From assembly GCF_000003815.2 (NCBI RefSeq), contig NC_049979.1, forward strand, positions 1,316,848-1,380,847: a stretch of DNA of 64,000 nt, written 5' to 3'. Position 1 is the first letter of the stretch; each line of letters opens with the position of its first letter. Source of the DNA: Branchiostoma floridae (taxonomy: Eukaryota; Chordata; Leptocardii; Amphioxiformes; Branchiostomatidae). The notes beneath the pieces are model-generated. The model was not told the origin of the DNA, did not search any database, and saw only the letters and a list, made by a program, of their open reading frames with translations. Made by a program: the position numbers and the translations under genes. Of the stretch, positions 26,666-62,864 are shown piece after piece.

Positions 26666-26725
26666 GTTTGTGTGATAACTGGGAGTTGAGGAAATGTTTA
26701 CGTTTTACCGCAGGTATAAACAAAC

Positions 26726-29700
26726 ATGTCGACCGGCAACAAGTTGGTGGCCATCTTGTTTCTACTTCATGCCATGCGTGACCCAGGTTTTACTGACGGA
26801 CAGACCACAACAACACCGGGTACATCAAGCTATGGTAAATAAACTCACAATTTTGTAACGGTAACCCAAATTTACTTAACATCATCATCATCAGCCCCAT
26901 AGCTTTTTTTTATTACATGCGGTCGACCAGTTCTACTACAATTTAACCTGTGCCCGATGTGTGATTCGGGTCAATCTGCTCCCCATTTGGGGTCTAACCG
27001 GGGGGCCAAGAAGACAACAAGAGCGAAGTCAAGTAGAGTTTATAGTCAATTGCACCAAGTTTCTACAGTCAAAGGTACAGAGACAGTTAGCCTTTATTAC
27101 ATGGAGATGGGATTTTAAAATGCAGTGGGAGTCCAATAATCCACCAAACAGATTCCTTTGTAGCAAAATTGACCAATTACCATTGTTTTGAGTATTGCCA
27201 GTTCTCAAGTTTCCACAGACAATCAGGTCCAGGTTCATGTCCGGACCTGGAAATTTCTGTACTGGTACCTCCCCCAAGCAACAATAGATTTTTTCTTTCT
27301 TTCTGTCCTTTCACATCTTATTCTTTGACTTTAGATTCATTTTGGCATTCTATGGCATTAGTTATCTGTTTTCTGATACTTTTTTTTTTCAATCTACGGA
27401 ATATTTGTGCTCATTCTACAGCTGCTTTGCACAATTTATTGTGTGGTCGAAAACTTTTTTTTTTTTGGAAATGGCCGAAAATTGGTGCGAGCGCGGATGT
27501 CATCCATATAATCAAATGAACGTGGCCTTATGAAGAGATGCATTGCAAATATGCGTTGTATGAAATAACTTTGATTAATCTAATTAATGACTTTCTGTCA
27601 AGTCAATGGTGGTAGCATTTCATCATCAGTGTCTTGAAAATGACAAGGTTTTCATACAGTGTTTTACAGTATAAGATCGCATGGGGGAGTAGTACAGTGA
27701 CATCGATTTATCGAGTCACTAGACAAAGTGAAAGTTGAAAGGATTCCGTGCCTTCAGTCAATTTGAACTGACAACTTCTATTGCTAGTTGACATCAACCA
27801 TTTTGCCTGTGTCAGGCCTACGTAACATTTCCTACTCGGGCCCGGCCGGGTTGTTTGCGGAAACGAAGAATTAAGGTAGTATATAACAGTGGCTGAGGAG
27901 CTTTGGGGGGTGTTTTTGGTCTTCTAAAATTACCATCTTAGATAATGTATGGACCTTGATTTTTTTAAGGTAGTACCTTAATGCATAAAGATGATTTATG
28001 CAAATTGGTATGACGTCACAATGACGTAATCGACTACTTTAAGGCCACACCCATTTTTTGAAAAAAAAAGCTTAAAAATCTTAAATTTTGACTTGTTCTT
28101 TGACTGTCATTATTGATACTTTTCAGAAATGTGCATAAAAGTGCTTTGAAAAGATCTGCGCTCTTGTCATGCTGATTTTTTATCATTTTTTTCTTGAAAT
28201 TTTAATTACCCCTTATGCTAACTATAAATATGCAAAAGGCATGCTGTTGAATTATGTTTGGTCCTTTCTGAGTTCATGTCGTACTTTTCGTTTGTTCCCC
28301 CAAACTGCCCCTTTGTGGAAATGTGACGTCTGAATTAGATGAATTCGAGTAAACTTTTTCCGATCAATTCTCTTTTATTTTTCTCAAGGTCGTTCGAAGA
28401 AGATAATCTTCCCCTATCCTCGCAGCACCAGTAACTACGCCGAGTTAAACGCCACTCTCTCTGAGGAATTGGGCAGTTTTACCTTCTGTGTACACATGCG
28501 CACGAACGACACTGCCGGCTCTTTAGTCAGCTATGCAACAGGAAGAATCAGCAACGAGATACTCATTGAAGGATGGAGAGGAAAAGGTTTCAAGGTAGGT
28601 TAGTGTTTTTCCTTAGCCTGGGTTGCACAATCAAAGTGAAAGTGATCCCCAACCAGTTTAGCTCAAATGTACTCCGGCAATGAACAGATGAGCTCATAGA
28701 GGACATACACTGTATACTGTATTTACATGTTCACGGTACCGAGAAAATTACCGAACTCATTTCGACAAATGTAATGAGCAGTGGACCTCGCTCTGCTTAA
28801 TGTCCTGTCTACAACCCTTTCCAGTAGCGTTCATAAAGGTGAGCGGATAGACACATCTGATATTTGAGCTTCTTGTTCAACTGGACTGCGTACGCTACCG
28901 CACAAAGTCAATCTATTAACTGTCAGGGGATGACCGGTGGGTGCTAGAACTGCCCTTGCCACTGGTCAGGCTGATAGAGGCTTGATGGCCAAATATCTCT
29001 TAGCCAGTGAATAGGGAACATGAATTTAGTGTTAGGTTTCATTTTGTTGCATCAAGGTACCAATACAATGATGTATCATGTTCTTCTTTCAGATTCTCGT
29101 AGCAGGTGGAGTAACAAGTGGCAGATCGTTCAGTCTTCCCGTTTTGGACGGCTTATGGCACGTTATTTGTCTAACGTGGCAGGGCGTAGACGGGGCATGG
29201 GAACTATACGTTGACGGTGCACTGAATAGATCAGACTCGGGGCTTGGCGCTCGCAGAGTCATATCCACACAAGGAACGTGGATCCTTGGACAAGATCAAG
29301 ACAGTCAAGGAGGTGGATTTGACACTCCACAGGCCTTCAGTGGAGAAATGACGAGAGTAAACCTCTGGGACCGTGTTTTGTCTACATCCGAAATTGGGAC
29401 GAATTGGACCACGTTTTGCAGTCACCAAGGCAACGTTATCAACTGGACTAACACACAGATTCACGTGTTTGGGCAGGCCGGCTTTGCTCAATATGACCAT
29501 TGCGGTAAGTGTTTTCACTAGGAGATGTGCTCTCCTGCACTCCTAATGGACTTTCGAACGTAATCACATATTCAACTTTCATGTAAATGGATGAAACCAA
29601 GTTGTACTATACGTAATCTAGGGTTCATAAATAAGAAACCGATTGATCGAAACATTCGCAGGGTATCGGTACAGTGTACCGGTACAAAGCCGGTTTTTCT

Positions 29701-32700
29701 TATTGGACCGCCCCGCCCCCCCGTGATCTCGCCCCCCCCCCCCCGGGATCACTAGTGTTTTCGGCCCCTCCTTACCCTTTTGGGGTGAAGTCCTTCTAGT
29801 GATTTACATCTCCAATAAACCTAGAAGTTACAGTACTTTTGCTTCGTACAAATCACACCATACCTCCATTAAATATTTTTAGCCCTTGCAGATTTATAGT
29901 GTCATCTAGTCTCATTCATTATGCAAATAAAGCTGTAATTGACACGTTTGAGTTAACACGTGTGCAGATACTTTCGTTTAGCTGTATTTTATGATGACAT
30001 TTTGTCCTGAATTAAGAAAATGACTTGCGCATTTGCACAATCTATACATAGTGGTGCACAATTAATTTGCACATTGCACTTTAGAATTTTTGTACTTTGA
30101 CATTAATTATGCAAATCAGAATCTCATTTTCATAATCATTATCTGATATGTTTCACCTTCCATAACCTTTAAATTACATACATTACGTGTATTAAAGTCA
30201 CAACATGGAAACACTAGAATTACATATTCATCTCCTGAATTATGCGCATTATGTCCTAATTTGCATTTTTGCATGTCATTTCGTAAAGCCCATGCCACTT
30301 ATCCCTTATATCATGGTATGTGAAGGTAAAAAGAAAAAGGGAAGTTCTGTTTCAGTGACACAAGCAAGGTACTTATACCAAATTAACTACCAGACTATAT
30401 TCCACAATCATGATGCTATTGACCTATGTGAAATCAAACCTGAACATGTGGAGATTTACATGATCATGATATTTTGTTGTGTACAAACAAACACAAAAAC
30501 ATACAAGTCTCTGCAGTACCGACAGAAAGTGCCAGGTAAACCACTTTGGACGTTGACTTTCCTTTAGACAACCGCTACACAACAACCAAATCTCACCAAG
30601 ATCCATTCACAATGTCTCCAGTTATATGCTGTTAACATACTTACAGACACACCAGGCCCTCGCCCAACCGTTTGCATAGCCCTCTGGCGAAGGCGAAAAA
30701 GTGTACTTCGTTTTATGTATCCATGTAGTTCTTATCGCAAAACATACATAGTCTTTTAGGCTAACGTCACATTTCCAAACCGGGGCCCGGCCGGGCTGTT
30801 TGACAGTTTGTGGAAACGAAAAAAAAAAGAAATGTATACGTGAAGATATACCCGAAGAATGCCCGCGACCATACTCTTGACGTCTTGTGTAGTTTGGTGT
30901 CCTTCATATCATACCTTTTGTTCCCAAAAGCTGCCCGGCAATGCCCCGGTTTGGAAATGTGACGTAGGCTTTACTAAGAGTTTGGGTGTATATACCGGAT
31001 TCATTTTGCAGTCGGTGATCGCTGATCTTTTATTAGCCTCAGTAAACTATTGTCATATCAATCGTTGACGTTTCACAGAGTCAAGTGATACAGACATTAA
31101 CGATTGGCATTCGTCATTTTTATAACGACGGTGTTTTAGGTTGCCCGTCCAATACTAAAGCTACATGTACGCCCAACCATGGTGGAAATAAGTGGCTGTG
31201 AAAAGAATAGTTTATGCCACAGTCTACATGACTGCTCTTGGGGGATATGGAAGTGATAACAACCATGTATGCGACTTAATCGTGCCAATGAGCATCAAAT
31301 CAAATCATACAAATCTGAATAACAATTTACGATATTTCAGTCTCAAAGATTTTTGTTACATGTATTACCTTTGTGCGAAATTTCAACTCATTTGATATGA
31401 TAATGCACCTGTTATGATAAGTCGCCTTCTTAACACTGCAATCTTGCTTACTTCGGGAGACCTGTCAAGGTTACGTTAAGGAGAAAGATCGAAAACGAAA
31501 TCGGTATGTAACGTTATGTAGTGGTCAAAACATAAAGGGATAATCCGCTGGAAAAGACGTTCTACTGGGTACCCATATGTTGTCTGAAAAACCTCACAAA
31601 CAGCTGACTCAGTGAGCAGTAGATCATATGTTGCAGGAAGTTTATGGCGCCCACCGTCTCTGTTCAGGGATGGTTACAAAGCTCTGATGTAGATGGCTTC
31701 TTTGATCCCTCTAGTGACAAAGTATGTCCAAGATTTTGACTTTGTCAAGTGAGACCGAATGCCTCGGTGATTCTATGTGAATATGTTGGGACATGTTTGA
31801 GGTTTTTGATCTCAGACCACATAGACCTCCTGCAACCTATGATCCACTGCTTACGTGTTCTATCTGCATAACGTGACGTCACGACAGCAGCGGATTGTTC
31901 ATTCCTTGACAAAGACTGGAGCACGTCGATGTAGGTTAGACATCCAGGTAATGAGATACGCCAAAAATAGTTACTCAAGCAACTGGATATGGTTTTGAAA
32001 CGGTCAAAACCATATCCAGTTTCAAAACCATTTGAAACTTTCAAAACCATATCCAGTTGCTTGAGTAACTATTTTTGGCGTAAAGACTGGAGCTGTTCAG
32101 TTCAAAATTTGGCTGAGTCTAATTTTTGTGTTGAATAAACTAGCTCGATTATGACTTCTACCAACACAAATGAACTTTCAAGTTTAGATTTTCTTGCAGT
32201 TGTTCTGAAACAGGACAGCCTAGCTCCATTACTAAATAGGAAATTTGAATTCCAATTTTCTATAATGTATTGACAGCCGAGCTCCACCACTTCGCGTACG
32301 CTTTCAAAAGCAAACTTCAATAGAAAAGTTCAAATTTCCCCATGTCCCGACAGCTGTGGACCATTGCCAGTCTGACCCGTGCATCAATGGGGCCTGCAGT
32401 AGCGGTGCGGACAGCTTCACCTGCTCCTGTGACGATGGCTACGAGGGAGAAACTTGTCAAACTCCCGTCGGTATGTGAGCCTATACTTAAATTTACCCCA
32501 AATTTCAACGCATCTGTGGAGTATCACTCACTTTCCAATGATTCCATATCAATGAAGCATCTGCGTGCTGTCCACCAAGTTGGTGTCATTGGTTTTCATT
32601 TCAATGGATCGAACTCGTAGCTCAAATATACATTAGCTGAAATACAGCTCACTAACCCTTATCACGACGGTCTAAATCCAGCTGACGTTACGCTGGGAGA

Positions 32701-35700
32701 CTCAATTCCTGCAAGGGGGAACCAAATTAGGAAACGTTAGTTTTTGACAGGAATGATTATGGTATAGCTAATTTTTCGTTTAATTTTTTTTGCACAAGGT
32801 GATTTTTGAACTCGAAGAAGTGGGGGTAAAATATGTATTATTTGTCACAAACATTGTCGTTCTAATGCATTAGCTTTGGCCGTGGTCTCCGCCGACCTGA
32901 CACTGGCAGGCGAAGTGTTTACAGACGACCTGAATGACATGAGTCATCCACGGTTCCTGATGCTCGCAAGGGCGATAGAATCTGAGGTACATAGTTTTAT
33001 GTTTCTTGGTACCCCCCCTTTTTTTTGATTATCAAAGATGGACCATAATATTGCATTTGTATGTTTTATCCAAATTGGCTGTTATAATGGTGTCTATCTT
33101 CTGTCCTGTAGACATCCCTAGCGTTTGCGGCAGTTCCAAACTTCAGAAAGGCAACAGTGACGAGATTTCGGTAAATGAAAATGATTTTCCATTTTGTGTT
33201 TTTGCATCCTATTGCTATTTTAAACAAACCAATAAGACCAGTTAACTCAGTGAACGCATACATTTGCCAATTGTTAACCCAGGCTTATATCTGACTTATT
33301 CTAATTCCAACGTAATCTACCATTGCTTGCGACTGTGTATTATTGTATGTCTGTAAGAATGTCAGTCTTTATCCTTCCTTTAAGTATGGGCAGCGTGATT
33401 GCTACTGTAGACATGGAGTTCCAGAGTACTGACCAGGCTCCTGGATCGGATGAGGTCGTCATGGTAGCAACTCTTCAGCAGTACATCAGCGATAACGGAG
33501 GACGTCTGGGTAACCTGACTGTGAGTCAGGTGGATGCTGTGCTGTCTCCAGGTAAGTGTGAATCCGCAAGTAACCAGATTTCCTCACTGTTGATGAATGT
33601 GGAGAGGGACATGATCCAACAGATAAATTCAAATTCTGTATTTGTGATCTATAGTTTAACTGTAATGAGTTGATTTTCCTACAGCCATGCCATAGACCTA
33701 CTAGAATGGACGTATGGCCTAATCAATAGACATTAAATTCATATTGATTAGCTGATGCGTTTCCCCTTTAAATTACATGCAACTGAAATTTCTAGTAAAT
33801 GTTTCATGATAATCATACGATGCAGTATAATGAAATGTGTCATAGAAAATGATATTTCGAGTAACTTGTGTTCTATAGAGCCATGTTAATAGTCTCGCAT
33901 TTGAATACATATTAGATATCACTCAATGGCTTGCACATTACACATATGATGGATACACACACACACACACACACGCACACATGCACACGCGCGGGCATAC
34001 ACGCATGCTATCTGCAATCTTGCAATCTTACTTTAATTGAAGTAAGGCGACGAGGTTACTTTAAGAATCCACTGCACAGCTCAATTTCATATTCATTTTT
34101 CTTTCTTTTCTTTCCCATTCTTCGACAGTCTACTGTAAGGAGGAGGCTGTACAGACAGAGGCCGGGCTGGTGTATTTTCCTCGTGCGGACGGCGACAGTT
34201 TCTCCTACTCCGCTGAACGATGTAACTCTTCCGCAGAACATGGTCAGTATGATGCGGGCCTATTTATAAGGGAATGTTAAAATCTTTCACGGATATCACA
34301 AGTCCACCATACCATGTATATTAATGACATTTAATAGTTAAAGTCCTTCCCGCACGAGACGGGCGGCCCCATATCCATTTCAATACCCTCGGGCCACACA
34401 AACTTGTGTAATCACTTTGTATATTGTCGATGCACTGGGTAAGTGATGTATTGGTGTACTGTACCTTGCTCTTTTCCAAATCCAGTGCTTAGCAGAAAAA
34501 GTGGCATGTTTATTTTTAAAGTCTTTGGTATAACTCACTTTTAAAGTCTTTGGTATAACTCACTTTTAAAGTCTTTAATACGACTCGGCCGGGGATCGAA
34601 CTCACGACCTACTGAAAGAAAAGCGAACACTCTACTCACTTGGCCATTGTATTTACGTGTTTTCATGTTCCTCTCTCCAGAGAAGCCCCTGGCCACTCGG
34701 TTCTGCCGGATCGCCACGGGTAGAACTGCGGTGTGGGACCCGCCTGTCCTCCTCACGTGTGATACTGACTCGCGAAACCTGTCTCAGGTAGGCGTTTACA
34801 GCTAAAACACATAAGCACACTAGCTGCGTGTTGAATGTATAGGAACTGAAATGATCGGGAAATAATACTTGTTCTTCTTGTTCTTGTTCCCCTATTGATT
34901 GTGTTGGGGCAAACCATCCAGGACATGTTCGCACATGTTCGCACACGACGGGTTATACCGCCCCTTACGGGGTGACACACCCGTCCGGGTGAATGATGTA
35001 GGTCACCATGTGGCTGATACGAGACAGAGGTTCGCCAGGCCTCCATCCGAGTGATTTGAAGTGAATCACCAACTCCCAACAGAAGGATTTGCACCAACGC
35101 ACACCGCACCATCGCACATGTGGGGGTTCTTTAACGTGCATGGGGTATGGCTCTCCCCATACACGGGACCTCCATTTAACGTCCTATCCGAGGGACGACT
35201 CATTTTTCACTTGAGTAAAGTGAGGAAAGTCGTGTAAAGTGCCTTTCCCAAGGGCACAAGACCGGCAACACGGCAGGCGGATTCGAACCGGCGACCTCTC
35301 GGTCGCGGGCCGAATACACTACCACTGTGCTACGCGGCCCTACTTGAATAGGGACACAGACTAAAAGGACTAAGGAACAGGACAGAAATTTGAGTGATTA
35401 CCATATAAAACACAGTGTTGAGTGAGTGCGTATATGATATTTGACTTGAGGGTAAGATGGAGGCCAAGGCGGATTTGGGGCTCCCAGCGGCTTCCCTTGG
35501 TACTTCAACGAAACTTCCTGCGTTTATATCTTCTCCAGATTGTAGTGACCAACGAGACAGCTCTGTCTGTGGCGGCGGAAGTGCAGGTGATCACAATACA
35601 GGCTGAGACGCTCTCGTCTGATGACGTCACCAGCATCAGTACCATCTTACAGGAAATAGTCAACGTCAGCGCCACAGAGCAGGTACGCTATCATCATCAT

Positions 35701-42646: not shown

Positions 42647-42717
42647 CTCCCGAATCACTCCTAAACCATAGTCGGGAGAGAGTCGGGAGCCAAATTCGGC
42701 TATGTGTAACCTAGGCA
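42529..42717 (+). mobile_element. Transposon right end inserted in the last coding exon of receptor 1
   Basis: Matches 9946-10134 at the same length (189 bp): it starts inside the palindrome at GAATGTTTTGAACATTTC and ends with the terminal CCTAGGCA. Receptor 2 reads straight from GTGGTGGAGGAAGCTGCGG to AACATGGCGG at this place. The reading frame enters the element after MKKWWK and continues for 37 codons, rich in AEHQPTQP- and RTPADSAE-like segments, to TAG at 42644-42646. Confidence 0.92.
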
Positions 42718-45027: not shown

Positions 45028-45077
<50 letters not shown>

Positions 45078-47358: not shown

Positions 47359-48188
47359 ATGGTGGGAGCACCTCCACGGCGTCTAATGACACACGTCCTG
47401 TGCTTCCTCGTCTTCTTGTTTCCGAGTGATATTCTCAACTCCAGCGCAACTGGATGTGGAGGTAACCTTACGGCTCCATCTGGAGGTCCTGTGACGTCAC
47501 CTAACTACCCCGGTAACTACGGCAACAATGAGACCTGTGATTGGCTGATCACCGTTCCGACAGGAAGCACGATTCGTCTTACGTTCGACAGCTTCAACCT
47601 TTTGAACGGGTCTGACTTTTTGGCCGTCTACGATGGAGCCAATGCTAGTGCTTCGCAGTTTCAGAGGTAACGTTCTATTAGAAATGACTCACAGGAACAA
47701 GAAGGTTGATTATGTAAAAGCCAATGCCTATAAAATGTAAATCAATTTAAAGTTAGGATATAATGACAATGACAATGAAGTTTATTGCATATTCATGCCC
47801 CATTGGGGCTAAATGCATTCAGATTGGTATAAAGGGAGTAAACGGAAAACTATACATATACTACAAAGTACGTGCTTCTCTCTTCTTAAAGCATGTGTAG
47901 ACAAACTTACAGAGTTTTTCCAGTATATCGTAGTTAGATGATGACATAAGGTATTTGAACAGATCTTCCTTCGTTATATAAGAATCTGCTCTCCAAAAAC
48001 GACGTTGAAACGTCTGAACGTTTTCAGAGTAATTACTATTTGGCGTAACATACTTTTCTCCCTGTCCAGTTTGACAGGCTCACAGACAGTCAACCCCATC
48101 ATTAGCACATCTAACGTGATGCTCCTGAGGTTTACATCTGATGGGAGTGGGACGGCGCAAGGCTTCCAGTTCTCCTACACAAATCATT
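47359..48188 (+). CDS. Signal peptide and CUB domain exons of receptor 2
   Basis: Two exons (47359-47666, 48070-48188). HVLCFLVFLFP forms the signal peptide core. CGGNLTAPSGG, VTSPNYPGNYGNNETCDWLI, FNLLNGSDFLAVYDG and LLRFTSDGSGTAQGFQFSY are classic CUB signatures. The domain ends CGG-to-FxFxY and looks complete, but only two cysteines are visible rather than four. Confidence 0.93.
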
Positions 48189-51100: not shown

Positions 51101-54100
51101 GATTTATCTACTTTCCTCATTAATTATGCAAATTAGCTGTTGATTTGCTTAATTAGTAGTACATTATGTAAGTCATCACTCATTCTATCTACATACCAAA
51201 AATCATGATGAGTTTGAAAGGTTTGAAAGGAATTGGTGCCTGCAGTTAAAACTCCCAAAACTCCAAACTCATAACACTTACTCTCTGCCCCAAGGGCTAT
51301 CTACCACTCAAAAATCATGACCACAGCATGTCCAGAACACGAGATATCGAAAGTTGGAAGTTTTTGCTGCAGTACCTTAGGGAGCCGCTAGGAGACCTAG
51401 TTCGAAGCTAACCTTCGTTTTCCTAAAACCTACCAAATATCATCAGGATCCATTCAAGGCTTCTCGAGTTATGCTGTACACAAAAAAGCGGACGCACACA
51501 TTCGGCCCGCTACCATCCTGACGGGAAAAGGCTACGCCAACCATGTTCGAACATGACCTTCCTTTTCGTAACCGCTACTCAAATACCAAATATCATCAAA
51601 ATCCATGCACAGCTTCTCGAATTATGTGCTGTTGACCTGCATATAGGGACACAACATGAGGCCGAAAATATAACCTTCTTGGCGAAGGTAATAAATAGTA
51701 TTGTAACGTTATATCCTGTAGTTTGGTTTAGTTGGGGAACCTCATTTGAAGTGGACATTTGAACTTATGGTCCACCAGTGTTTATCACACAATGCAAAAA
51801 GTTAACAGAGGTTACAAAGATCAGAAAACCTCACAGACTTCTTAAGTATGAAGCAAATGACGAAAAAGAAAATGTAAAGACAACATTGTACCAGTTGCTG
51901 CATTGTGAAAAGCATCCGGATAGCCTCGACAAGGTAGTTTTGTTGCTGTGGTCATGCTAGACAATATGGTCTGTATCTTTCACAGACAAAATGAAATAGC
52001 TGAAAATGTTGATAAAACCATAAACTGTATGAACACTTGTCTGCGATAGGTGCGACACCAACTGTGGGTCAGAGGTCTACAGTCAGCACACCTACAGTTC
52101 TGACTTCAACAGCAACAACGAGAACAGCCTGCACTGTGACACAGTCGACAGGTTAGTTTTCTTCTACATCGATGGACATCGGCACTGCTGTGAACCACAT
52201 TTGCACTGATTAGTATCTTCTATTTTAATCACATGTTCCCTTTGTAAAAGATGATAAATATCTAACAAGCAAGGCAAGGAAATGAGGACAACAGCTTCCA
52301 GGCTGTCTCACAAATACACTTTGGAACGCTCAGGAATAGGGTGGCACTTGCTTTAGCCGCCGAGTAGCATAATCATCAATTATCATTTAGAGGCCATAGA
52401 ATGGTGGTGTAAGTAACTAACCTGAGATACAGCCTTTTTGTTTTCTGGTGGTGATGGCAGCTTTTATGATCAATAGTAGTGGCATTTCAGTTCTGTGCAA
52501 ACCTTCTGGGAGCCTTTGGTTTCTTTTCTGGTTTCTTTTCTGGTTTCTTTCCTGGTTTCTTTTCAGGTTTCTTGTCTGGGTCTTTTAAATGGAAATTGAT
52601 GGACATGTAAAATGCACATGTGAACACTTGACTGTTATAATAATAGGTACAGCATCAACAGTGGGGCAGACGCCAACTGGAAGCACACCGACGGTGGGGC
52701 AGACGCCAACTGTAAGCACCGCGACGGTGGGGCAGACGCCAACTGTAAGCACCGCGACGGTGGGGCAGACGCCAACTGGAAGCACCGCGACGGTGGGGCA
52801 GACGCCAACTGTAAGCACCGCGACGGTGGGGCAGACGCCAACTGTAAGCACCGCGACGGTGGGGCAGACGCCAACTGTAAGCACCGCGACGGTGGGGCAG
52901 ACGCCAACTGTAAGCACCGCTACGGTGGGGCAGACGCCAACTGTAAGCACCGCGACGGTGGGCCAGACGCCAACTGTAAGCACCGCGACGGTGGGGCAGA
53001 CGCCAACTGGAAGCACACCGACGGTGGGGCAGACGCCAACTGGAAGCACACCGACGGTGGGGCAGACGCCAACTGTAAGCACCGCTACGGTGGGGCAGAC
53101 GCCAACTGTAAGCACCGCGACGGTGGGGCAGACGCCAACTGTAAGCACCGCGACGGTGGGGCAGACGTCAACTGTAAGCACCGCGACGGTGGGGCAGACG
53201 CCAACTGTAAGCACCGCGACGGTGGGGCAGACGCCAACTGGAAGCACCCTGACAGTGGGGCCAACTGAAAGCACACCGCCGGTTGTGACTTCAAGGGCAA
53301 CTACAAGGACAGCAAGCACAGCGGCCCAGTCTACAGGTTATATAGCGTTGGCTCTAAAGCTAGCGGTGTCTGTAACACTTCTGTATAAACACTGTACTTG
53401 TTGGTACCGGTAATATCTTACTTCCATATACGAGATACTACGGAAGGGCAGACATAGTTACTGTAACACTAATCTAGTTCTGAAAATATGAAATTGTCCC
53501 CAAAGGGTGGCTGGACAACGGGCACTCAAATTGCTTATAGTCATACATTATGTACATACACATGTAACATGATATTTGCATTATGTACATACACATATAA
53601 CATGTTATTTGCATTACGTCATACACATGTGATATGCTGGTACACTTCGTAACCCACAGGTTCAGCTGGAACTCAGGGAACTGTCAGGACCCTGGTCACC
53701 AGACTCGTCACAACTCTCAACGCTACTGAGACTCTTCCAAGTCAGTAAAGCACTATAAACAATGAGACCCCTTTCTACTAGACAGAACTGAGTGACAGTA
53801 CAGCTAACAAAATTGGATTTGTGTAACCTTGATTTTATAATTAGAAGATGTCACAATATTAAAGTATGATTAAAATGGCAAAAAAAAACAGAAAATTGTT
53901 CTTTATCTATGATAGTGAGCCAGGGAAATCGTAGCTCCACCATTTCGTATACGCTTTCGAAAGCAAACTTCAATATAAAAGTTCAATTTTCCCCATGTTC
54001 TGACAGCTGTGGACCATTGCCGACTCGACCCGTGCGTCAATGGGACCTGCAGTAGCGGTGCAGACAACTTCACCTGCACCTGTGATTATGGGTACGGAGG

Positions 54101-57100
54101 AGAAACTTGTCAGACTCCCTTCGGTATGTTGTGAGCCTTCACTCACTTTCCAATGCTTCCATATCAATGAAGCATCTGGGTGCTGTCCACCATGTTGTTG
54201 TCATTGATTTTCATTAAAATAGACCGTAGCTCAAATATACATTAGCCGAAATGCCTTACAAAACCGGCGGTCTAAATCCCGCTCACGTTCCCTCTTCCGC
54301 CTCAATTCCTGCAAGGGGGAACCAAGTTAGGAAATGTCAGTTTTGGTATGCATATGGGTATAGCAAATTTTGGCAACATTTTGTACAATTTGTATATTTT
54401 GTGATTTTCGAACTTGTATAATGACAGATGTGGGGTGAAATATGCATTATTTGTCCCAAACATTGTCGTTCTAATGCATTAGCTTTGGTCGTGGTCTTTG
54501 CCGACCTGACGTTAGCAGGCGAAGTGTTTACTGACGACCTGAAGGACATGAGTCACCCACGGTTCCAGATGCTCGCACGAGCGATAGAATCGGAGGTACA
54601 TATGTGTGTTTCTAATTATCAATGGTGGACCATGACATTGCATTTCTCTCTTTTATCCAAAATTTCTGTTTTAACGATGTCATCTTCTTGTGTCTTGTAG
54701 ACATCCCTGGCGTTTGCGGCAGTTCCAAGCTTCAGAAAGGCAACAGTGACGAGATTCCGGTAAATAAAATTTCAACACTGGTGATAGGCTACGATACCTG
54801 TTGTATCTGGTGTATTTTATTTATTCTACATTTCTGCCATGTAAATCCGATCTTCGAGCATTTGTATGGTTGATATCTATTGAAATTCTATTCTTTTACC
54901 ATTGCATGTGTCACATATCTCCTCATCATTTGTAAATTAGCATATGTCCATGTGAAACTTTGAAAGCAACTCGTACCATTGCATGTGGATGTGCATAACG
55001 TATGTACGTCTGCATGGTTGTTTTTGCTCCTTACTCTCAGCATGGGCAGCGTGATTGCTACTGTAGACATGGAGTTCCAGAGTACTGACCAGGCTCCTGG
55101 ATCGGATGAGGTCGTCATGGTAGCAACTCTTCAGCAGTACATCAGCGATAACGGAGGACGTCTGGGCAACCTGAGTGTGAACAAAGTGGACGCTGTGCTA
55201 TCTCCAGGTAAGTGTGAGTCAGTAAGTAACTAGACTTTATATTTCCACACTGTTCATGAATATGGAGAGTAACATGGTCCAATAAATATGATCTATAATA
55301 TGAATTACAGCCATGCCAGCGAGTCTATGATTTGCACATTACATACATGATGGATACACACACACACGCACGCATACAAGCACGCACGCACACGCAAATT
55401 GTAGAATATCATGTATCGTGTTTGCTGTCTGCAATATTACTTCGATTGAAGTAAGTCGACGAAGTTAAGCATCCACTGAACAGTTCAACTTCATATTCAT
55501 TTTTCTTTCATAACGCCCATTATACTGTAATGCGACAGTCTACTGTAAGGAGGAGGTTGTAGAGACAGAGGCTGGGCTGGTGTATTTTCCTCGGGCGGAC
55601 GGCGACAGTTTCTCCTACTCCACTGAACACTGTAACTCTTCAGCAGAAAATGGTAAATTTTGGTATATTTAAGAGAATAATAAAATTTTTCATAAAAGTC
55701 ACTGTTCCACCATATCCCATGCCGCCTGGACGTGTTCATGGTATTTAGTTGACGTTTAAGCCCTTCCTGTACCAGATCCATTTCAAAGGCCAATTGGGCC
55801 ACACAAAACTGAGCTTTCAATACAGCATGATATTGTAGTGGTGTTTGTTCAACTACTCTTTCCAAATGCCGAGTGACGAGCAGTGAAAGCAGTCACAAGT
55901 TTTACAAGACATGGCGGCAGCGGATCGAACTCACGACGTGCCATGTATCAAATGTAATTCCAACGCTTCACTCACTTAGCAATTTCATAGAATTTACTCG
56001 TTCTCGTTTTGATATTGTGTACCACAGAGAAGCCCCTGGCCACTCGGTTCTGCCGGATCACCACGGGTAGAACTGCGGTGTGGGACCCCCCTGTCCTCCT
56101 CACGTGTGATACTGACTTGCGAAACCTATCTCAGGTAGGCGTTTACATATAAAACAAAAGAGTTGTGCATTGGATGTGATTATGTGGCTGAATTCTTAAA
56201 AATCAATGTTTTCATCTGGACTTACTGGAGCAACGAAAAAAATAAGAGTATTACGATTTATGAAACACAGCTATGAGTGCGTTCGTATCTGTGTGGGTGT
56301 TTGCACATACTGTACACTGCACAACTCAAATTGGTATGAAATGCTTAACATAATATTTAATTAGAGGGCAAGATGGTGGGAAGATGAAGGCCAATATGGA
56401 TTTGGGGCATTCTAGCAACTTTCCTTGGTACTGCAACGAAACCTCCTGTGCTCATATCTTTCCAGATTGTAGTGACCAACGAGACAGCTCTATCCGTGGC
56501 GGCGGAAGTGCAGGTGATCACAGTACAGGCTGAGACGCTCTCATCTAACGATGTGGCCAGCATCAGTACCATCTTACAGGAGATAGTCAACGTCAGCGCC
56601 ACAGAGCAGGTGCGTTATCACTCCTCTCTCTCTCTCTTTATCTTTCTCTATCTCCCTCTCGATCTCCCTCTCTCTCTCACTGTTGCAGAATCCACCCAGA
56701 TTTTTTCAACCATCCACTTTGTTCCGAGTTTATTTCTTTCATTCTCACAGACGTATAGCAATCAGACCTCGCCAATGATCAGAACCATGTGCCTACCAGA
56801 AAAGAAAACTGTCTCCTAAAGGGTTGCCTTCTCCCACAGATCGGAGACTCCCTCATGACGACTGTGGACAACCTGATCAACGTGAACGTCACTGTCCTGC
56901 AGCAGAGTCAGCAGGAGAGGAGGGGACCGACCAGGTAACGGCGGACATATTCAAACCATTAGATAAGCATGTTTATGTCATACCTCGGTTGGCAATTCGA
57001 ATACCTGATTCGGACGTTAGAACATTGCTGTTGCAACACTTTTGGTTCGAGGGCACCAAATTTGTTCAACTTCTGGCGCATTTCGCATCAAAACATGGGT

Positions 57101-60100
57101 TTTCTCAGGTGGGTATGACATAAATAAAATACAACGTGTTGTATTCTATATATATATATATATATATATTGTGCAGTCGGTATAACTGATATTTGGTGTG
57201 ACCCAACGTCTTCTGTCCCACCGCTGCCACCAGTGTTGGCTTTAGGAAGGAGATCCACTCTGACTCGTGTCATGGGTGAGACTGACATGGGATATCCGGG
57301 TCCTTCTCTCTTTACTGGATCTAATTCACATCAGATGTCACAATATTACTGCCATGTGCTAACTGACCACACATGGCGTACCGCTACACAAGTATTACCT
57401 TCAGGAGCTACACACCAGTATCTTTATTTTTAGAAAGCTATATATTAAGCTGAAACGCCAGATGACATTGCATAGCAGTTGAAGAAGTAAAAAGGACCAA
57501 ATACCGTCTTAAGGTGTTTAGAAACATCTTAACTCGTCTTTTTAGAGTCGTACAGGCATTGGAGGCATTTGCTGATACAGTGGCACTGACCACAGAGAAG
57601 TACACCGCCGTGCGGCCAGGGGTGGCATTGCAGGCAGCTGACATCAGTCCAGAGGAGTTGGACAAGGGGCAAGGTTAGCATTGACTGGATAGTGTCCTGT
57701 CATCATAACGTCGTTAATCAAACAAAGAGTAGCATTTTTTAATTCCTGATATACCTGGTAAAACAATACAACGTAGAAGTAGTAGTCCACAGTGTTTTGT
57801 CGTTGCATTGGTCTAAACTACTCTTCAAGCAGAAGTTTGGCTACGGCTGTTGTATAGGTGTTTTTATCGGGCTGAATCCGTTTTCTCTCATAGTTCATTT
57901 CACCATTTTATTTCCCATTTATCGAAGTATTTCGTTACTCGAGTGTTTCGCTTGGAGCGACGAGACAATGTGTTACTTTCTTCAGGATTTGCCTTCTTTC
58001 TGAGTGGAGACGATTCTAACAGCTTGAAGGAAGGCAATGTTAGGAGCTTCAGTACTGAGGACGTTACGGGCTTTGTGCGAACTGCCGATATCTCCATTTC
58101 GATACCTCCGAACATCTCAAGTCTCATACAGATCAACAACACATCAGGTACTTTCTGGTGAATTGGACTGATATCCATGAGATTGTTGTGCATTCTGCAC
58201 AGTTTCTGCTCCATTTAAGTCCATAGAGGTAGAGTTACTTTAGTAATGGGGTAAAATTATCATTCCACGGCTATATATACATATTAGTTGATACCATCAC
58301 TCTCAGTTATCATTAGTCAGAATACAAAGGTGCAGCCGACACTGATGCAAAATGATGTCGAACTCATAGATACATGTCTGAAGTTAAGGGACCCTCTGTT
58401 ACAGTTTTAAAGTCTTTTGTCGTGGAATTCATCACCAAGTATTAGTGATGATGCCACGGTCGCGAAACAGATCAATCAGCCGTCACCGAAAATCTAAGGA
58501 GACCCCAAGGAGTTTTTTTCTCTCCCTCTCCCTGCAGAAGTCCGTCTGAGTTACACCCTCTACAACAGCAGCAGCCTGTTTGTGCAGACTTCCCAGGGTG
58601 CAGCGGGACCTTCCCAGGATGCAGTGGGAACGCGCATCATCGGCGGGAGAATCGCAGGGAGGCGGGTCAAGAACCTGCCCGAACCGGTCATCATCAACTT
58701 TGCACCCTTACAGGTAGCCTCATCCTGTCTGGATGTACCCTACTTTCTCAACCGTCACAGGCACAGCCCTGCTTATAAATATCAATGAGCTTACCCTTCT
58801 ATATGCGAGATCCGTTTTGAAAACTGAAGGGCCTTTTCTCTGATTGGCTGGCAGCTGGTTATTGGCAAAGCCTACAGGAACTAAGAGTGACGGTTGAGAT
58901 AGCGGCAGGGTACATCCAGACATGTCCCTGCGTATGAGGATGGGTAGCCGGGGTGTCACCGTATTCTAACTACGGTTCGCTCCTCAGATTGCTTCTATGA
59001 CGGAGCCCGTTTGCATTTTTTCTACTTCGGCTCTTTGCGTCTCAGAAGACGGTCAGCAGCTTCAGTCTGTCTCTGCCTCAGTCAGGTGCAGGTTACTCTG
59101 TGTAGTCCTGCCTTGGCAATGCATCTTACGGCTTCTACTTCTACTGTCAGCCAGTCTATACAGACTATGAATCTACGCAAAGGAACTCTTAGGGGCCAAT
59201 CAGTCAAATTTTAGGATGGCAGTCTCTACCGCAGAATGTGCAGATAAATACTTGACCTGTATTCATCCTTTTCCTATATGTCTTGCTTCCAAAAACTTAC
59301 TTTCACGGACAACCTTGTACATCTGTGTGCAATGCCGTTATTTCTCATTTGGTATTTAGATGTTTGCCCAGAAGGTTTTGTGTTCTTTTTATCATCTACT
59401 CCTTTCCCTTATCTTATTCATTTTGAGATTAGTCTGATTTGATTTGATTTCATATTTTTTAGAATTTCCTTCCCGAAGACGTGAAAGGGGTCAGGTGTGT
59501 GTTTTGGGACTTTGATGCCGAGTCAGGACAAGGGGCGTGGTCGACTGAAGGGTGTGAGAGCACGGGCGAGGAAAATGGACTGTACACCTGTGCCTGTAAC
59601 CACCTCACCAACTTCGCGGCAATCTTTGTAAGACCCCCATTTTACTAAACGGCGATCGCGCTACAACCATGTTGCGACCACAATTATATTTTTGCACCAT
59701 TGACTTCATAATTTAAAATTGTAAAATTTTTAAAAATAGTGAAAAGACCACAAAATACCAACAACGTGAAAAGGATGTTTTCTTTTCAATTGTGAAATTC
59801 TTATATGGCCTCCTTCAGTCAATACTAACCATTGTAAATTCCCAATCAACATCAGACCACATAGCCACATGGGGGAACATTTGTAAGCTGACTCAGGTCT
59901 GTTGCAAAGTTCTTTTCTGCATAGTAATGAAGTTAGAAAGGACATTCGGAAGTCCGATGCCAGTCACGCTTAAAAAACATTCGATACTCCCAAAAGTCAC
60001 CTCAGAGCCAATCATCACAGCCTTCGGGTATATTCTACTCTACAAACTGTCTATCGTCTTCCTATCTTCAGGACGTGTTTGGTGTGGGTTTCGGAGTACA

Positions 60101-62112
60101 CGAGAGGCCGCTAGAGGTCATCACTATTGTGGGCTGCGTCGTGTCCATCGTTTGTCTGGTCCTCACCTTACTCTCTTTTATCGTCACAAGGTAGGGAACA
60201 GCTGCCTTATACATGTATCTCAACAACTCGATCTAGAATGAAAACAAATCCCACATACGAAGTTAAATGTTGGCGGGCATATCGTTCAGAAGAATACTTA
60301 TTATGGATAATATTCTTAATTGACAACGCTTAAGACAGTGTAAAGGTTTTGTTTTCCGTGCAATTTCAAGGCTGGTTTTCATCCTGAAAGTACCATTGAG
60401 ACAAGCGTTAACATTTTTATGAGGTCCATCGTGCCATCTAGATGGCAATTCTGTTGTATCCATCCGGTGGTAACATCAAACCAGAAGACTAGAGTAGAGC
60501 CTAACAACGGTCATATATTTCTTAGCACCATGTATGTCTCCAAGCAAAGGGCGGCGCCCGTCTTTTTCTTTAGGAATTGGGCCACACAGTTGTACAAACA
60601 CAGATGGTACTTAATCCTACAGTAAGTAGAGTGCTAAGAAGAGAAGCAGAATGTACCATGTTTCATTACGTTAGCATTAAATGGATCACATATTAATAAT
60701 AATTCCAGGAACTACAAACGCCGCTCCAGCACAGGCCATGCCAGGAACCAGCGGCTCGTCCTCATCAACCTCTGCGTGGCTCTGCTGGCCATTCTCGTCA
60801 TCTTCCTCGCTGGCATCAACCAGACGGCGTCTCCCATTGGCTGCATGGTGGTGGCCGCGTTCTTACACTACTTCCTATTGGCTGCCTTGATGTGGATGGC
60901 GGTGGAGGCCGTTAACATATACCTCGCCGTTGTGGTAGTGTTTGACCATCACGTGTCTGAGAACTTCGTCATCAGGGCTGCAGCAGTAGCATGGGGTGAG
61001 GGATTTTCTAATTCACAAACCACCTGAAAGGGGTACTGAACCCCAGAAGCAGATCTTGTTTTCCAGGATCCGTTCTTTTGCATTATAAAAGTTTAAAACA
61101 CTTCGAAAAGCGATTTCGATAACACATCCCAAATTAGCGTGTTAAGACGACTTGAACCATCCAAAACCTACACAACTCCTAACACATTCTTAAGTGCATT
61201 AGTAAAAGTACCAAACTTAAAACAAAAGCATGTTTCGTAAACTAGGCGATGTGACATAATGGACACGTGACTTCAACATTAAAATTAGTTAACGTTTCTT
61301 GCTGCGCTAAATGTAGTCCTTGTCGTTACCCTGCCTTAAGAAAAGTTCATTTTTCAGCAACAAGTGTGTTTTCATACATTTGTCCAGGGTTTCCCCTTGT
61401 CGCCACGGTGTTGACTGTGGGACCCTCAGGTGTCTACCAGTACAGGATGAAGGACAAGTAAGTTATAAAGTCAAAGGCATCCTCATAATGATCACTGCTC
61501 ACTTTGAAATTCGTACTTCTACTTCATGTGGAGATGTCATCCAAATAATCGTTACTTCGAGATCCTGTTACATAGCAAGTTGGTATTGCAATTTGCATCC
61601 ATTCTCACCTGTACTAGTGACCACCTTGTTGATACATAGTCTATGATCTCTGCAAAATAGCCACCAGGTCATTGTGGTCCCTGTTAATTGGTCCTTTTGA
61701 ATATAATTTGAAAGAGTACAAAATCAGCCTTAAAAATGGAATTTATGAAATTTGAAAAATATTTCATGGGAGTCATGCAGCCTCTCTCTCATTGCTCGAG
61801 GCCATTGGTTGGCCTGCTCATTATAATAGGATCGGCCCATGAGTATCTTGAATGGCAGATAGCAACAGGAAAGCATAGCTGAATAAAACGTTTTATTTTC
61901 TCTAATGTTTTGCTTCCAGTTGCTGGTTGGCACAAACACCCCTGATTTATGCCTTCCTGCTCCCGGCGGGTCTCATCCTACTGTTCAACTTGCTGGTTTT
62001 CGTCATCGTCATGTGCAAACTGGTCCGGGACGAGAAGGAACTCAAACAGCTCAGAGGTGGATATGAAAAAAAACAGCCAGCGCCACACACGCACACAGGC
62101 ACACACGCGCAT

Positions 62113-62152
<40 letters not shown>

Positions 62153-62864
62153 TACACAACACGACACACACATACAAGAACAAACTTTCTTTGGTTTTGC
62201 CTCAAAATCACTTAAAAGTCACTACTTAAAAAAAATCATTCAATCCACTAATACAACATCAGTAACCCCAAATGTGTTTGCACACCCAAGATATTCAGAT
62301 GTTCAAGACATTCTTGTTGCCACTGTCTCACTGCCTGAAAAGATGGGACCTTTCCAAAACTTTTCTATTGTATCTTGAGTAAATGTTACCTTTTGCATCT
62401 TATTGCCGGGATGTCTATTCTTCATCGACGTATGAGGGTTGACGATATATGTTTTATGTGCAGGTGCTAAGATCAAAGAGGCCGACCGTTACTGGATAAT
62501 CCGCCAGATCCGCCGAGCCTTCAGCATCATGGCTCTGTTTGGTCTCACCTGGCTGTTCGGCTTCTTCGTCATCAACGACGCGCGCGCCGTGTTCGCCTAC
62601 CTGTTCTGCATCTTCAACACCCTCCAAGGCCTCTTCATCTTCATCTTCCACTGCGTGATGCGGGAGGACATGAAGAAGTGGTGGAGGAAGCTGCGGAACA
62701 TGGCGGTACCGTGCAGCTACAGGGGAGGGAAGAAGCATGGTCTGTACGATGTCAGTGGGAGAAGAACGTCTCTTTCTTCCTCTAGTGTACACACGTCACA
62801 GACAACGCTTGTACGGCTGAGCTCTTTCTCATACAATAGCAAACCTGATGGTGAGCCGCTGTAG
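47359..62864 (+). CDS. Adhesion GPCR 2: CUB-SRCR-mucin-EGF-SEA-HormR-GAIN-7TM (ADGRG6-like)
   Basis: The spliced frame is 4224 nt, 1407 residues, 24 GT-AG in-phase exons: 47359-47666, 48070-48188, 49128-49358, 49475-49606, 52050-52151, 52647-53336, 53660-53740, 54007-54123, 54483-54595, 54701-54759, 55041-55207, 55539-55652, 56028-56134, 56466-56609, 56840-56934, 57546-57673, 57986-58147, 58538-58713, 59463-59627, 60072-60190, 60709-60995, 61388-61457, 61920-62056, 62464-62864. Domains by residue: signal peptide ~1-30, CUB ~34-142, SRCR ~155-263, Thr/Ser stalk with repeat ~264-554, EGF 555-593, SEA 594-706, HormR ~707-780, GAIN/GPS ~781-1070, 7TM ~1075-1345, tail to 1407. The tail holds RRTSLSSSS, a candidate basophilic-kinase site. 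From the EGF exon on, exon lengths and phases equal those of receptor 1 except the last exon. AATAAA at 63059-63064 may be the polyadenylation signal. Confidence 0.92.
48420..48690. repeat. 27-bp minisatellite in the CUB-SRCR intron
   Basis: About ten copies of GTGAAAGATAATTGTGTTGT plus ATGTTTG, the first truncated and one variant (CGTGAAGCATAATTGTG). The unit is a multiple of three and stop-free in several frames on both strands, so it mimics coding repeats. It is within an intron by the splice model. Confidence 0.95.
49128..49606 (+). CDS. SRCR domain exons of receptor 2
   Basis: Two exons (49128-49358, 49475-49606). IRLVGGSSPNEGRVEV, WGTVCDDHFG, ICRMLGYSG, YMDDLHCTGTERSLFDCGY and NCDHREDAGVVC follow the SRCR pattern. 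Six cysteines and a two-exon structure fit the group A class. A short Thr/Ser/Pro linker (TTAPVTATPSPT) precedes it. Confidence 0.95.
49804..49990 (+). repeat. Dispersed repeat, also at 30364-30540
   Basis: Same sequence landmarks as the copy in receptor 1, with a longer A-run and a small insertion (GACAACTGCGATGCTTTA). Confidence 0.7.
50650..51660. repeat. Intronic repeat in two tandem diverged copies, period about 543 bp
   Basis: CTATCTACCACTCAAAAATC starts near 50753 and again near 51298. Both are followed by GACCACAGCATGT, TGCTGCAGTACC, GGAGCCGCTA-like, AGACTTCTCGAGTTATGC-like, GCGGACGCACAC and CTACGCCAACCAT. A leading module GATTATGCAAATTAGCTGTT occurs near 50690 and 51122. No coding potential; family not identified. 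Confidence 0.8.
52050..53740 (+). CDS. Mucin-like stalk exons of receptor 2
   Basis: Three phase 1-1 exons (52050-52151, 52647-53336, 53660-53740). The first encodes PTVGQRSTVSTPTVLTSTAT, then TRTACTVTQST. The second encodes the 11-residue repeat array and ends TSRATTRTASTAAQST. The shared ends show that the first two exons are tandem duplicates and that the array grew inside the second. Very rich in Thr, Ser and Pro, so dense O-glycosylation and an extended rod are expected. Confidence 0.88.
52658..53251 (+). repeat. Coding minisatellite: 18 copies of 33 bp (11 residues)
   Basis: Unit ACGGTGGGGCAGACGCCAAC plus TGTAAGCACCGCG, translated TVGQTPTVSTA, with variants TVGQTPTGSTP, TVGQTPTGSTA, TVGQTSTVSTA and TVGQTPTGSTL. 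Near-identity between units means recent homogenisation, and copy number is likely polymorphic. The antisense strand is also open across the array. Confidence 0.97.
54007..54123 (+). CDS. EGF-like exon of receptor 2
   Basis: VDHCRLDPCVNGTCSSG, then FTCTCDYGYGGETC. Same length and phase as 32354-32470. Upstream intron sequence (CAAACTTCAATA, TTCCCCATGT) is shared, marking the point where the two receptor loci become alignable. Confidence 0.92.
54483..55207 (+). CDS. SEA domain exons of receptor 2
   Basis: Exons 54483-54595, 54701-54759 and 55041-55207. LAGEVFTDDLKDMSHPRFQ, LARAIESE, TRFRMGSVIATVDMEF and LGNLSVNKVDAVLSPG. The G-S-V turn is kept in both receptors. Confidence 0.85.
55539..56134 (+). 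CDS. HormR-like exons of receptor 2
   Basis: Exons 55539-55652 and 56028-56134. YCKEEVVETEAGLVYFPRAD, HCNSSAEN, FCRITTGRTAVWDPPVLLTC. Four cysteines, as in receptor 1. Confidence 0.7.
55755..55985 (-). mobile_element. SINE of the second family, counterpart of 34340-34655
   Basis: Minus-strand head with GTCGTGAGTTCGATCC, and a body with GCCGAGTGACGAGCAG-like and TTGGGCCACACAAA-like segments, in the intron between the two HormR exons. It is more eroded than its counterpart. Confidence 0.65.
56466..58713 (+). CDS. GAIN domain exons of receptor 2 (before the GPS exon)
   Basis: Exons 56466-56609, 56840-56934, 57546-57673, 57986-58147 and 58538-58713, identical in length to those of receptor 1. 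The last ends NLPEPVIINFAPLQ directly at the donor GTAGCC, into which a MITE has inserted. Confidence 0.87.
58721..58942. mobile_element. hAT-like MITE inserted in a 5' splice site of receptor 2
   Basis: Same family as 23164-23419, in opposite orientation: arms with CATCC, TGTCTGGATGTACCCTAC, and backwards CATCCTCATACGCAGGGACA; interior CTTATAAATATCAATGAGC and CTCTGATTGGCTGG. The target duplication is GGTAGCCT on the left and GGTAGCCG on the right. Receptor 1 shows the empty site (CAGGTAGCCTAGGTGTC). The left duplicate includes the last exon base and the donor. Confidence 0.92.
59463..59627 (+). CDS. GPS exon of receptor 2
   Basis: CVFWDFDAESGQGAWSTEGC, then TCACNHLTNFAAIF. An intact HL-T cleavage site and the same Stachel-type start as receptor 1. 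Confidence 0.95.
60072..62864 (+). CDS. Seven-transmembrane and tail exons of receptor 2
   Basis: Exons 60072-60190, 60709-60995, 61388-61457, 61920-62056 and 62464-62864. TM1 VITIVGCVVSIVCLVLTLLS; the TM2-3 exon with WMAVEAVNIYLAVVVVF; CWLAQTPLIYAF before TM5; FGLTWLFGFFVI TM6; IFNTLQGLFIFIFHCVM TM7. The undisturbed tail runs from WWRKLRNMAVPCSYRGG to KPDGEPL and gives the ancestral state for receptor 1. Confidence 0.95.
60545..60665 (-). mobile_element. Headless SINE fragment, counterpart of 40220-40345
   Basis: GGGCGGCGCCCGTCT, GGGCCACACAGTTGTACAAA and GTGCTAAGAAGAGAAGC in the TM1-TM2 intron, at the same place as in receptor 1. Confidence 0.7.
62095..62160. repeat. CA microsatellite in the TM5-TM6 intron
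   Basis: CA repeats beginning about 40 bases after the donor. Receptor 1 has a short CA/TA tract at the same position (about 41868-41905). Confidence 0.9.

What the first reader, a model, noticed from the sequence alone, without database searches (positions are those of the whole stretch)
26726..62864. Tandem receptors divide the ADGRG6 ectodomain: pentraxin in one, CUB in the other
Seen: both genes have EGF-SEA-HormR-GAIN-7TM in the same order with identical exon lengths. Receptor 1 begins with a pentraxin domain and no CUB; receptor 2 begins with CUB then SRCR and no pentraxin. Known: vertebrate ADGRG6/GPR126 has CUB-PTX-SEA-HormR-GAIN. Inferred: either a CUB-PTX ancestor duplicated and each daughter lost one module, or each daughter captured a different module. 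Complementary loss in neighbouring paralogs would be a clear case of domain-level subfunctionalisation.
Basis: partly seen in the sequence, partly recalled or inferred. Interest (0 to 1): 0.88.

Follow-up and report, generated by a model that had tools for sequence, protein, structure and literature searches.

The report
Lancelet receptor with a swapped head
In what appears to be a lancelet, one of three side-by-side adhesion receptors seems to have exchanged its original outer end for the start of a different adhesion receptor 18 million bases away, so the neighbours did not simply split an ancestral vertebrate-like receptor between them.

Summary
The anatomy is real. Receptor 1 (26726-42646) is pentraxin-EGF-SEA-GAIN-7TM; receptor 2 (47359-62864) is CUB-SRCR-mucin repeat-EGF-SEA-GAIN-7TM; 16 of 17 shared exons match in length and splice edges.

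The ADGRG6 "complementary loss" reading fails. A third tandem copy starts 5 kb past the window: CUB, two SRCR, seven CUB, same core. Receptor 1's signal exon and both pentraxin exons are 81-86% identical to another adhesion receptor 18 Mb away (no other match above 59%), whose 7TM groups with human latrophilins. Its pentraxin resembles neuronal pentraxin and CRP; ADGRG6's was not found at E<=1.

Array-specific DNA brackets the exchange: 25817-25992 on the left and 30366-30471 on the right, shared only with receptor 2's post-SRCR intron. Donor-like DNA spans 26497-29664. A high-copy repeat (about 29723-30365) fills the junction.

Best reading: receptor 1 is a head-swap chimera made by recombination at a phase-1 intron; order and direction are inferred. 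Seven different heads were seen among eight family members. Lancelet aGPCRs with new domains and fast exon shuffling are published; I found no report of this swap.

The parts
24395..25992 (.). Left flank of R1, native to the array: blocks 24395-24827 and 25817-25992 collinear with R2's left flank (44500-44926, 45543-45735)
   Evidence: 81% and 79% identity. In the whole genome the second block matches only itself, R2's flank and a 72-bp piece 4.4 kb upstream of R3 (3 matches of 3 candidates). The first block partly matches the donor locus in another orientation, so it is partly a repeat; its genome search did not complete. A run of Ns lies between the blocks.
26497..29664 (+). Donor-like segment of R1: 5' flank, signal exon, two PTX exons and parts of the introns
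   Evidence: Collinear DNA similarity, 71-89% by piece, with C1:19501071-19503581
26726..26834 (+). R1 exon 1, start codon and signal peptide, phase 1 out
   Evidence: gene model; 86% DNA identity with donor exon 1
28389..29504 (+). R1 pentraxin exons 28389-28594 and 29093-29504 (outer phases 1 and 1)
   Evidence: Pfam Pentaxin 5.5e-34; 84% and 86% aa identity with donor
29665..30365 (.). Dispersed repeat at the junction (high-copy from 29723; 29665-29722 matches other dispersed pieces in part)
   Evidence: 1365 first-look candidates, 40 scored; besides R1's own copy 19 cover 550 bp or more up to 30365 at 88-97% identity; small pieces
30366..30490 (.). Intron remnant shared with R2's post-SRCR intron (49804-49944)
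   Evidence: 85% identity. In the genome search 30366-30471 matches only R2; a dispersed repeat also matches from 30472 on. 170 bits against at most 61.7 for 200 control 125-mers
32354..42646 (+). R1 core: EGF 32354-32470, SEA 32874-33551, HormR-like 34129-34787, GAIN/GPS 35539-38726, 7TM and tail 39184-42646
   Evidence: exon models and Pfam
47359..48188 (+). R2 signal peptide and CUB (47359-47666, 48070-48188)
   Evidence: Pfam CUB 1.1e-24; first CUB exon 89% aa identical to that of R3
49128..49606 (+). R2 SRCR (49128-49358, 49475-49606; the last donor site is weak, chosen by eye)
   Evidence: Pfam SRCR 9.1e-30
52647..53336 (+). R2 mucin-like Ser/Thr repeat exon, phase 1-1
   Evidence: 33 bp x 18.2 copies, 95% match; open in frame
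54007..62864 (+). R2 core: EGF, SEA, HormR-like, GAIN/GPS, 7TM
   Evidence: exon models; 88.9% aa identity to R1 core

Best explanation
R1 is a chimera of two adhesion GPCRs. An R1/R2-like ancestor of the tandem array began with signal-CUB-SRCR. A segment of at most 4.4 kb at its 5' end was replaced by the signal exon and pentraxin cassette of a latrophilin-like receptor (PTX-HRM-GAIN-7TM) 18 Mb away on the same chromosome. The junctions lie outside the coding exons, the right one in a phase-1 intron where a high-copy repeat now sits. R2 and R3 kept CUB-SRCR fronts. Mode of action (inferred): the constant SEA-GAIN-7TM core is a signalling chassis with two likely cleavage points (GSVIA in SEA, HLT at the GPS), and the exchanged head sets what it senses: a pentraxin in R1, CUB/SRCR on a mucin stalk in R2. 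Shown: the shared front, the bracketing array-specific DNA, the shared core. Inferred: direction, order of events, role of the repeat, function.
For: R1 signal+PTX exons are 81/84/86% aa identical to C1:19501218-19503429; no other match exceeds 59% (150 of 160 candidates scored). DNA similarity with that locus is collinear over 26497-29664, parts of the introns included. The other gene reads on into HRM, GAIN and GPS (model, hand-trimmed), and its 7TM groups with human L2/L3 (support 94 and 0.98). The left flank 25817-25992 is found only in the array, and 30366-30471 only at R1 and in R2's intron 0.2 kb after SRCR; the tool warns that it skips very common words. From 29723 to 30365 lies a dispersed repeat. 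Boundaries between head modules in R1 and R2 are all phase 1. R2 and R3 share signal+CUB. Of seven other family members, six show no PTX in the sequence held.
Against: Dating does not fix the order: Ks for PTX, R1 against the donor, is 0.38 [0.25-0.52] (0.35 [0.25-0.47] with the signal exon), as high as or higher than R1-R2 core Ks (EGF+SEA 0.26 [0.15-0.41], HormR-like 0.11 [0.03-0.21], GAIN 0.19, 7TM 0.16); gene conversion in the array may explain it. The seventh relative (C14:4.99 Mb) has a PTX pair 40 kb beyond its outermost exon found (49% identical); if it belongs to that gene, PTX is not unique to R1 in the family. R3 lacks the intron remnant. R2's SRCR differs strongly from R3's (Ks >1), so the ancestral front is not fully fixed. 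Repeat copies are 88-97% alike, so the repeat may be younger than the swap. One assembly only; no transcripts.
Confidence: 0.77

Rival explanations
1. Complementary loss: a CUB+PTX ADGRG6-like ancestor duplicated, R1 lost CUB and R2 lost PTX.
For: The two heads are complementary, and R1 keeps a scrap of R2's post-SRCR intron, so R1 may once have had an SRCR-side front.
Against: The PTX cassette with its own signal exon is shared with a latrophilin-like gene and is not ADGRG6-like; no PTX trace in R2 or R3; no CUB found in the sequence held beside the 3 PTX-7TM places except R1's own neighbours; Adgrg6 reported absent from amphioxus (PMC11475505).
Confidence: 0.06
2. Other direction or order: the PTX front belonged to R1 or the R1/R2 ancestor and was copied into the latrophilin-like gene, while R2 regained a CUB front from R3 by conversion.
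For: PTX Ks is not lower than R1-R2 core Ks; core exons show a mosaic of nearest neighbours; a PTX pair lies 40 kb from the C14:4.99 Mb relative.
Against: Needs more steps: R2, R3 and the C3 relative all begin with CUB, and array-specific DNA lies on both sides of the donor-like block in R1. The C14 PTX is only 49% identical to R1's.
Confidence: 0.13
3. Assembly artefact: an allele or another locus was misjoined upstream of R1's EGF exon.
For: One assembly; Ns in the left flank; a repeat at the junction.
Against: Two misjoins would be needed, since both flanks are array-specific; frames and phases are consistent; PTX Ks near 0.35 is far above allelic difference (the latter judged from recall).
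Confidence: 0.04

Closest known systems
Vertebrate ADGRG6/GPR126 (CUB-PTX-SEA-HormR-GAIN-7TM; PMC6954182, passages read)
   Same: Adhesion GPCR with SEA and GAIN/GPS and, split over two genes, CUB and pentraxin folds
   Different: No gene here has both; PTX is not of ADGRG6 type; by eye the SEA has GSVIA, close to the ADGRF motif, and no (R/K)-X-K-R furin site as in human GPR126; EGF and SRCR present; 7TM not placed with ADGRG6
Amphioxus adhesion GPCRs with new domains (Nordstrom 2008, PMC2246102, abstract and passages read)
   Same: Reports CUB, SRCR, C-type lectin and other domains in lancelet aGPCRs and suggests domain shuffling
   Different: In the passages read, no locus-level donor, breakpoint or tandem array is given
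Fast exon shuffling in lancelets (PMC4284660, passages read)
   Same: 1-1 phase bias, TE fragments enriched in translocated regions
   Different: Genome-wide statistics; the term GPCR does not occur in its main text
Lancelet/Ciona aGPCR families ADGRN and ADGRX (PMC8584163, passages read)
   Same: Families outside all vertebrate aGPCR families; this one may be one of them

Membership tests
Adhesion GPCR class | GPS/GAIN plus secretin-type 7TM | tested here: met
   R1: GPS 2.3e-14, 7tm_2 8.4e-41, GPR128_GAIN_subdomA 1.6e-7; R2: GPS 7.6e-15; R2 7TM by 94% identity to R1
ADGRG6/GPR126 | CUB followed by PTX in one ectodomain | tested here: not met
   R1 PTX only, R2 and R3 CUB only
ADGRG6/GPR126 | PTX of the ADGRG6/ADGRG4 type | tested here: not met
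   NPTX1 124 bits, CRP 96, ADGRG4 31.5, ADGRG6 absent at E<=1
ADGRG6/GPR126 | CUB of the ADGRG6 type | tested here: inconclusive
   ADGRG6 42.3 bits against best single domains of cubilin 55.7, PCPE1 47.7, neuropilin-1 42.9
ADGRG6/GPR126 | 7TM grouping with ADGRG2/4/6 | tested here: inconclusive
   ADGRL3 scores highest, G4/G2/D1/G6 follow; unrooted tree of 20 sequences (4 human) leaves the family outside the G2/G6 pair
ADGRG6/GPR126 | Hormone receptor (HRM) domain | tested here: inconclusive
   No HRM match in R1, R2 or R3; GPR128_N below cut-off
ADGRG7/GPR128-like | GPR128-type GAIN subdomain A and N-terminal domain | tested here: inconclusive
   GPR128_GAIN_subdomA 32 bits over cut-off 22; GPR128_N 25.6 bits (R3) under 27.2; no 7TM comparison was possible
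Subfunctionalised duplicates | ancestor with both modules, one lost in each copy | tested here: not met
   PTX came with a front shared with another receptor; no gene with both found in the places examined
Exon-shuffled chimera | symmetrical phase-1 module, non-allelic donor, junctions outside exons | tested here: met
ADGRN/ADGRX | grouping with the published lancelet sequences | not testable with these tools
   sequences not available here

The most novel reading that the evidence does not exclude
The array and its dispersed relatives form a receptor system with one signalling core and exchangeable recognition heads (pentraxin; CUB-SRCR-mucin; CUB-SRCR2-CUB7; CUB12-Sushi; Sushi-SEA-EGF; C-type lectin+SUEL; two SUEL). 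Heads are traded between receptors, even of other aGPCR families, by repeat-assisted recombination in phase-1 introns, while gene conversion keeps the cores alike: a germline head-exchange repertoire for sensing microbes or matrix.
Probability: 0.3. Interest if true: 0.82.

Novelty: new variant of a known kind. Interest (0 to 1): 0.62.

Why it matters
Domain shuffling among adhesion GPCRs is usually inferred from domain tables. Here a likely donor, the recipient, the phases and array-specific DNA on both sides of the exchange can be named, with a repeat at one junction, so it becomes a testable case of how a receptor acquires a new sensing head. It also removes a tempting account of how ADGRG6 might have been divided, and points to a lancelet receptor family with one core and many recognition heads.

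Tried and rejected
Complementary loss from ADGRG6: rejected as main reading. The CUB comparison with solved structures does not help either way, since cubilin's 163 bits sum four domains. A CUB+PTX receptor elsewhere: by eye over the 119 7tm_2 matches (150 of 220 candidates scored) and the 129 PTX matches (150 of 150 scored), PTX lies near a 7TM in 3 places: R1, C1:19.50 Mb, and C14:5.049 Mb (40 kb beyond the outermost exon found, 49% identical, so doubtful). No CUB was found beside the second and third in the stretches held, 20 kb and 6 kb, and around R1 only those of R2 and R3. The CUB list scored 150 of 969 candidates, so it is not exhaustive. Dating the swap by Ks was inconclusive. Classification by 7TM stayed open because only four human sequences could be read from printed alignments. 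Class of the junction repeat: no inverted repeat found, unclassified. A first script for relatives failed because a variable was overwritten; it was rerun. R3's CUB/SRCR front was read from domain hits; the automatic models of it were rough. C7:11.08 Mb (a CUB 77% like R2's, with a PTX 5.4 kb away) was not read.

Full report
What is there. I modelled both receptors with a small splice-aware gene finder plus comparison of the copies. R1 has 20 exons (26726-42646) and R2 22 exons (47359-62864). Both give open frames with consistent phases. R1's exon edges projected on R2 fall on AG and GT, with equal lengths, in 16 of 17 shared exons. Core amino-acid identity is 88.9% (R1-R2), 90.2% (R1-R3) and 90.6% (R2-R3). 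Pfam supports Pentaxin, EGF, SEA, GPS and 7tm_2 in R1 and CUB, SRCR, SEA and GPS in R2 (R2 without its repeat exon and 7TM). The unit called HormR does not reach HRM; GPR128_N is its best match, below cut-off. R2 has an extra mucin-like repeat exon.

A third copy. Fetching the next 59 kb showed R3 (C1:1385953-1412249) with hits for one CUB, two SRCR, seven CUB, EGF and the same core. R2 and R3 share the signal+CUB exon (89% aa for the CUB part; Ks 0.47). Their SRCRs are far apart (Ks above 1). In the 143 kb joined stretch no PTX match outside R1 has E below 0.6.

Where the pentraxin comes from. In the genome, R1's signal and PTX exons have one close relative: C1:19501218-19503429, 81%, 84% and 86% identical. 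Other matches stay at or below 59% (134 matches, 150 of 160 candidates scored). DNA similarity is collinear from 26497 to 29664 and includes the 5' flank and parts of both introns. That second gene reads on into HRM, GAIN and GPS (a hand-trimmed version scanned), and its 7TM groups with human ADGRL2/ADGRL3. Against solved structures R1's PTX finds neuronal pentraxins and CRP; ADGRG4 is weak and ADGRG6 absent at E<=1.

Both edges of the exchange. Upstream, 25817-25992 matches R2's left flank (79%), and 25806-25875 a piece 4.4 kb upstream of R3 (81%), and nothing else in the genome (3 matches of 3 candidates, self included). Downstream, 30366-30533 matches R2's intron 0.2 kb after its SRCR (85%); its first 106 bp match nothing else, while from 30472 on a dispersed repeat also matches. 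The tool notes that it skips very common words. As a control, 200 random 125-mers from other R1 intron DNA reached at most 61.7 bits against R2's intron, the remnant 170. Between donor-like and array-like DNA lies a dispersed repeat: besides R1's own copy, 19 copies cover 550 bp or more up to 30365 at 88-97%, of 40 scored and 1365 first-look candidates. The query ended at 30365, but, which began at 30340, did not find those copies, so the repeat seems to end close to 30365; the call meant to map its ends did not complete (last try). So the donor-like block looks like an internal replacement anchored on both sides in DNA native to the array. Since R1 keeps a piece of R2's post-SRCR intron, and R2 and R3 share a CUB front, R1 most simply lost a CUB-SRCR front and gained the PTX front.

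Results against. PTX Ks (0.38, 95% range 0.25-0.52; 0.35, 0.25-0.47 with the signal exon) is not lower than core Ks (0.11-0.26 for R1-R2), so timing does not prove the order. Per-exon nearest neighbours are mixed, which suggests gene conversion within the array. The repeat may be younger than the swap. R3 lacks the intron remnant. A PTX pair lies 40 kb beyond the outermost exon found of the C14:4.99 Mb relative; it is 49% identical to R1's and its link to that gene is unknown.

The wider family. The same core occurs at C3:3.04 Mb, C14:4.99 Mb, C14:19.67 Mb, C17:4.82 Mb and C18:11.98 Mb, with different fronts: 12 CUB (tblastn) then Sushi (C3), Sushi-SEA-EGF (C14:19.67; SEA and EGF by tblastn), C-type lectin+SUEL (C17), two SUEL (C18). 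The front of C14:4.99 Mb stayed unresolved. With R1, R2 and R3 that is seven different fronts among eight members examined; a fragment at C14:20.6 Mb and most distant members were not examined. These relatives' models are rough. In C14:19.67 Mb the EGF follows the SEA, whereas in R1-R3 it precedes it.

ADGRG6 or not. The 7TM scores ADGRL3 161.6, ADGRG4 142.8, ADGRG2 129.4, ADGRD1 129.1 and ADGRG6 127.8 bits. Over GAIN+7TM the ADGRG6 chain is the only one of the five printed alignments to span nearly the whole query. GAIN subdomain A matches GPR128's model. In a tree of 20 sequences the family stays outside the human G2/G6 pair, but only four human sequences were used, some lancelet ones align poorly and the tree is unrooted, so placement is open. 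R2's CUB is no nearer to ADGRG6's than to several others, but not clearly farther either. Adgrg6 is stated to have no amphioxus orthologue (PMC11475505, passage).

How it may work (inference). The SEA carries GSVIA, close to the GSVVV/GSIVA motifs reported to self-cleave in ADGRF1/ADGRF5 (PMC6954182, passage), and the GPS carries HLT. Force or ligand on the head could shed pieces and expose the tethered agonist TNFAAIF. R1's PTX keeps an ILGQDQDS...GGGFD..QAF stretch aligned with CRP's ILGQEQDS, which in CRP holds calcium (recalled). This suggests a head that binds calcium-dependent ligands, while R2 would present CUB and SRCR on a mucin stalk.

Novelty. Lancelet aGPCRs with CUB and SRCR (PMC2246102, abstract and passages), lancelet-specific aGPCR families (PMC8584163, passages) and fast 1-1-phase exon shuffling with TE enrichment (PMC4284660, passages) are in print. 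Paper searches listed nothing on this swap, judged from titles and abstract openings; the library lacks most subscription journals.

Noticed in passing
42532-42717 and 42717-42886: R1's last exon holds an insert of about 186 bp with CAGCCGAAC-type repeats that replaces the conserved C-tail; the old tail remains open downstream, so R1 may have a new tail or splice the insert out.
   Followed up: partly
49128-49606: R2's first SRCR exon is 78% identical to one at C14:13.21 Mb but 63% to those of R3, so it may be another module taken from elsewhere; its second exon has lost the donor site seen in R3.
   Followed up: partly
32354-42531 against 54007-62689 and R3: Nearest neighbour changes from exon to exon among R1, R2 and R3 (one intron is 92% alike between R2 and R3, against 73-77% for the other pairs), which looks like gene conversion in the array.
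   Followed up: partly
1803-4448 (-): Single open frame of 882 aa with leucine-rich repeats and a likely transmembrane segment (by eye).
   Followed up: no
14069-14710 (-): Sialyltransferase family 29 exon (Pfam 5.2e-31).
   Followed up: no
19623-19946 (+): Tpt1/KptA RNA 2'-phosphotransferase exon (Pfam 1.1e-15).
   Followed up: no
outside the window: G000 C7:11083753 and C7:11089334-11090295: A CUB exon 77% identical to R2's lies 5.4 kb before a pentraxin exon pair on the same strand, with no 7tm_2 match listed near; possibly a CUB-PTX protein that is not a receptor.
   Followed up: no
L023-L026 (C17:4.82 Mb, C18:11.98 Mb): Relatives of R1 carry C-type lectin and SUEL (rhamnose/galactose-binding) lectin heads on the same core.
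   Followed up: partly
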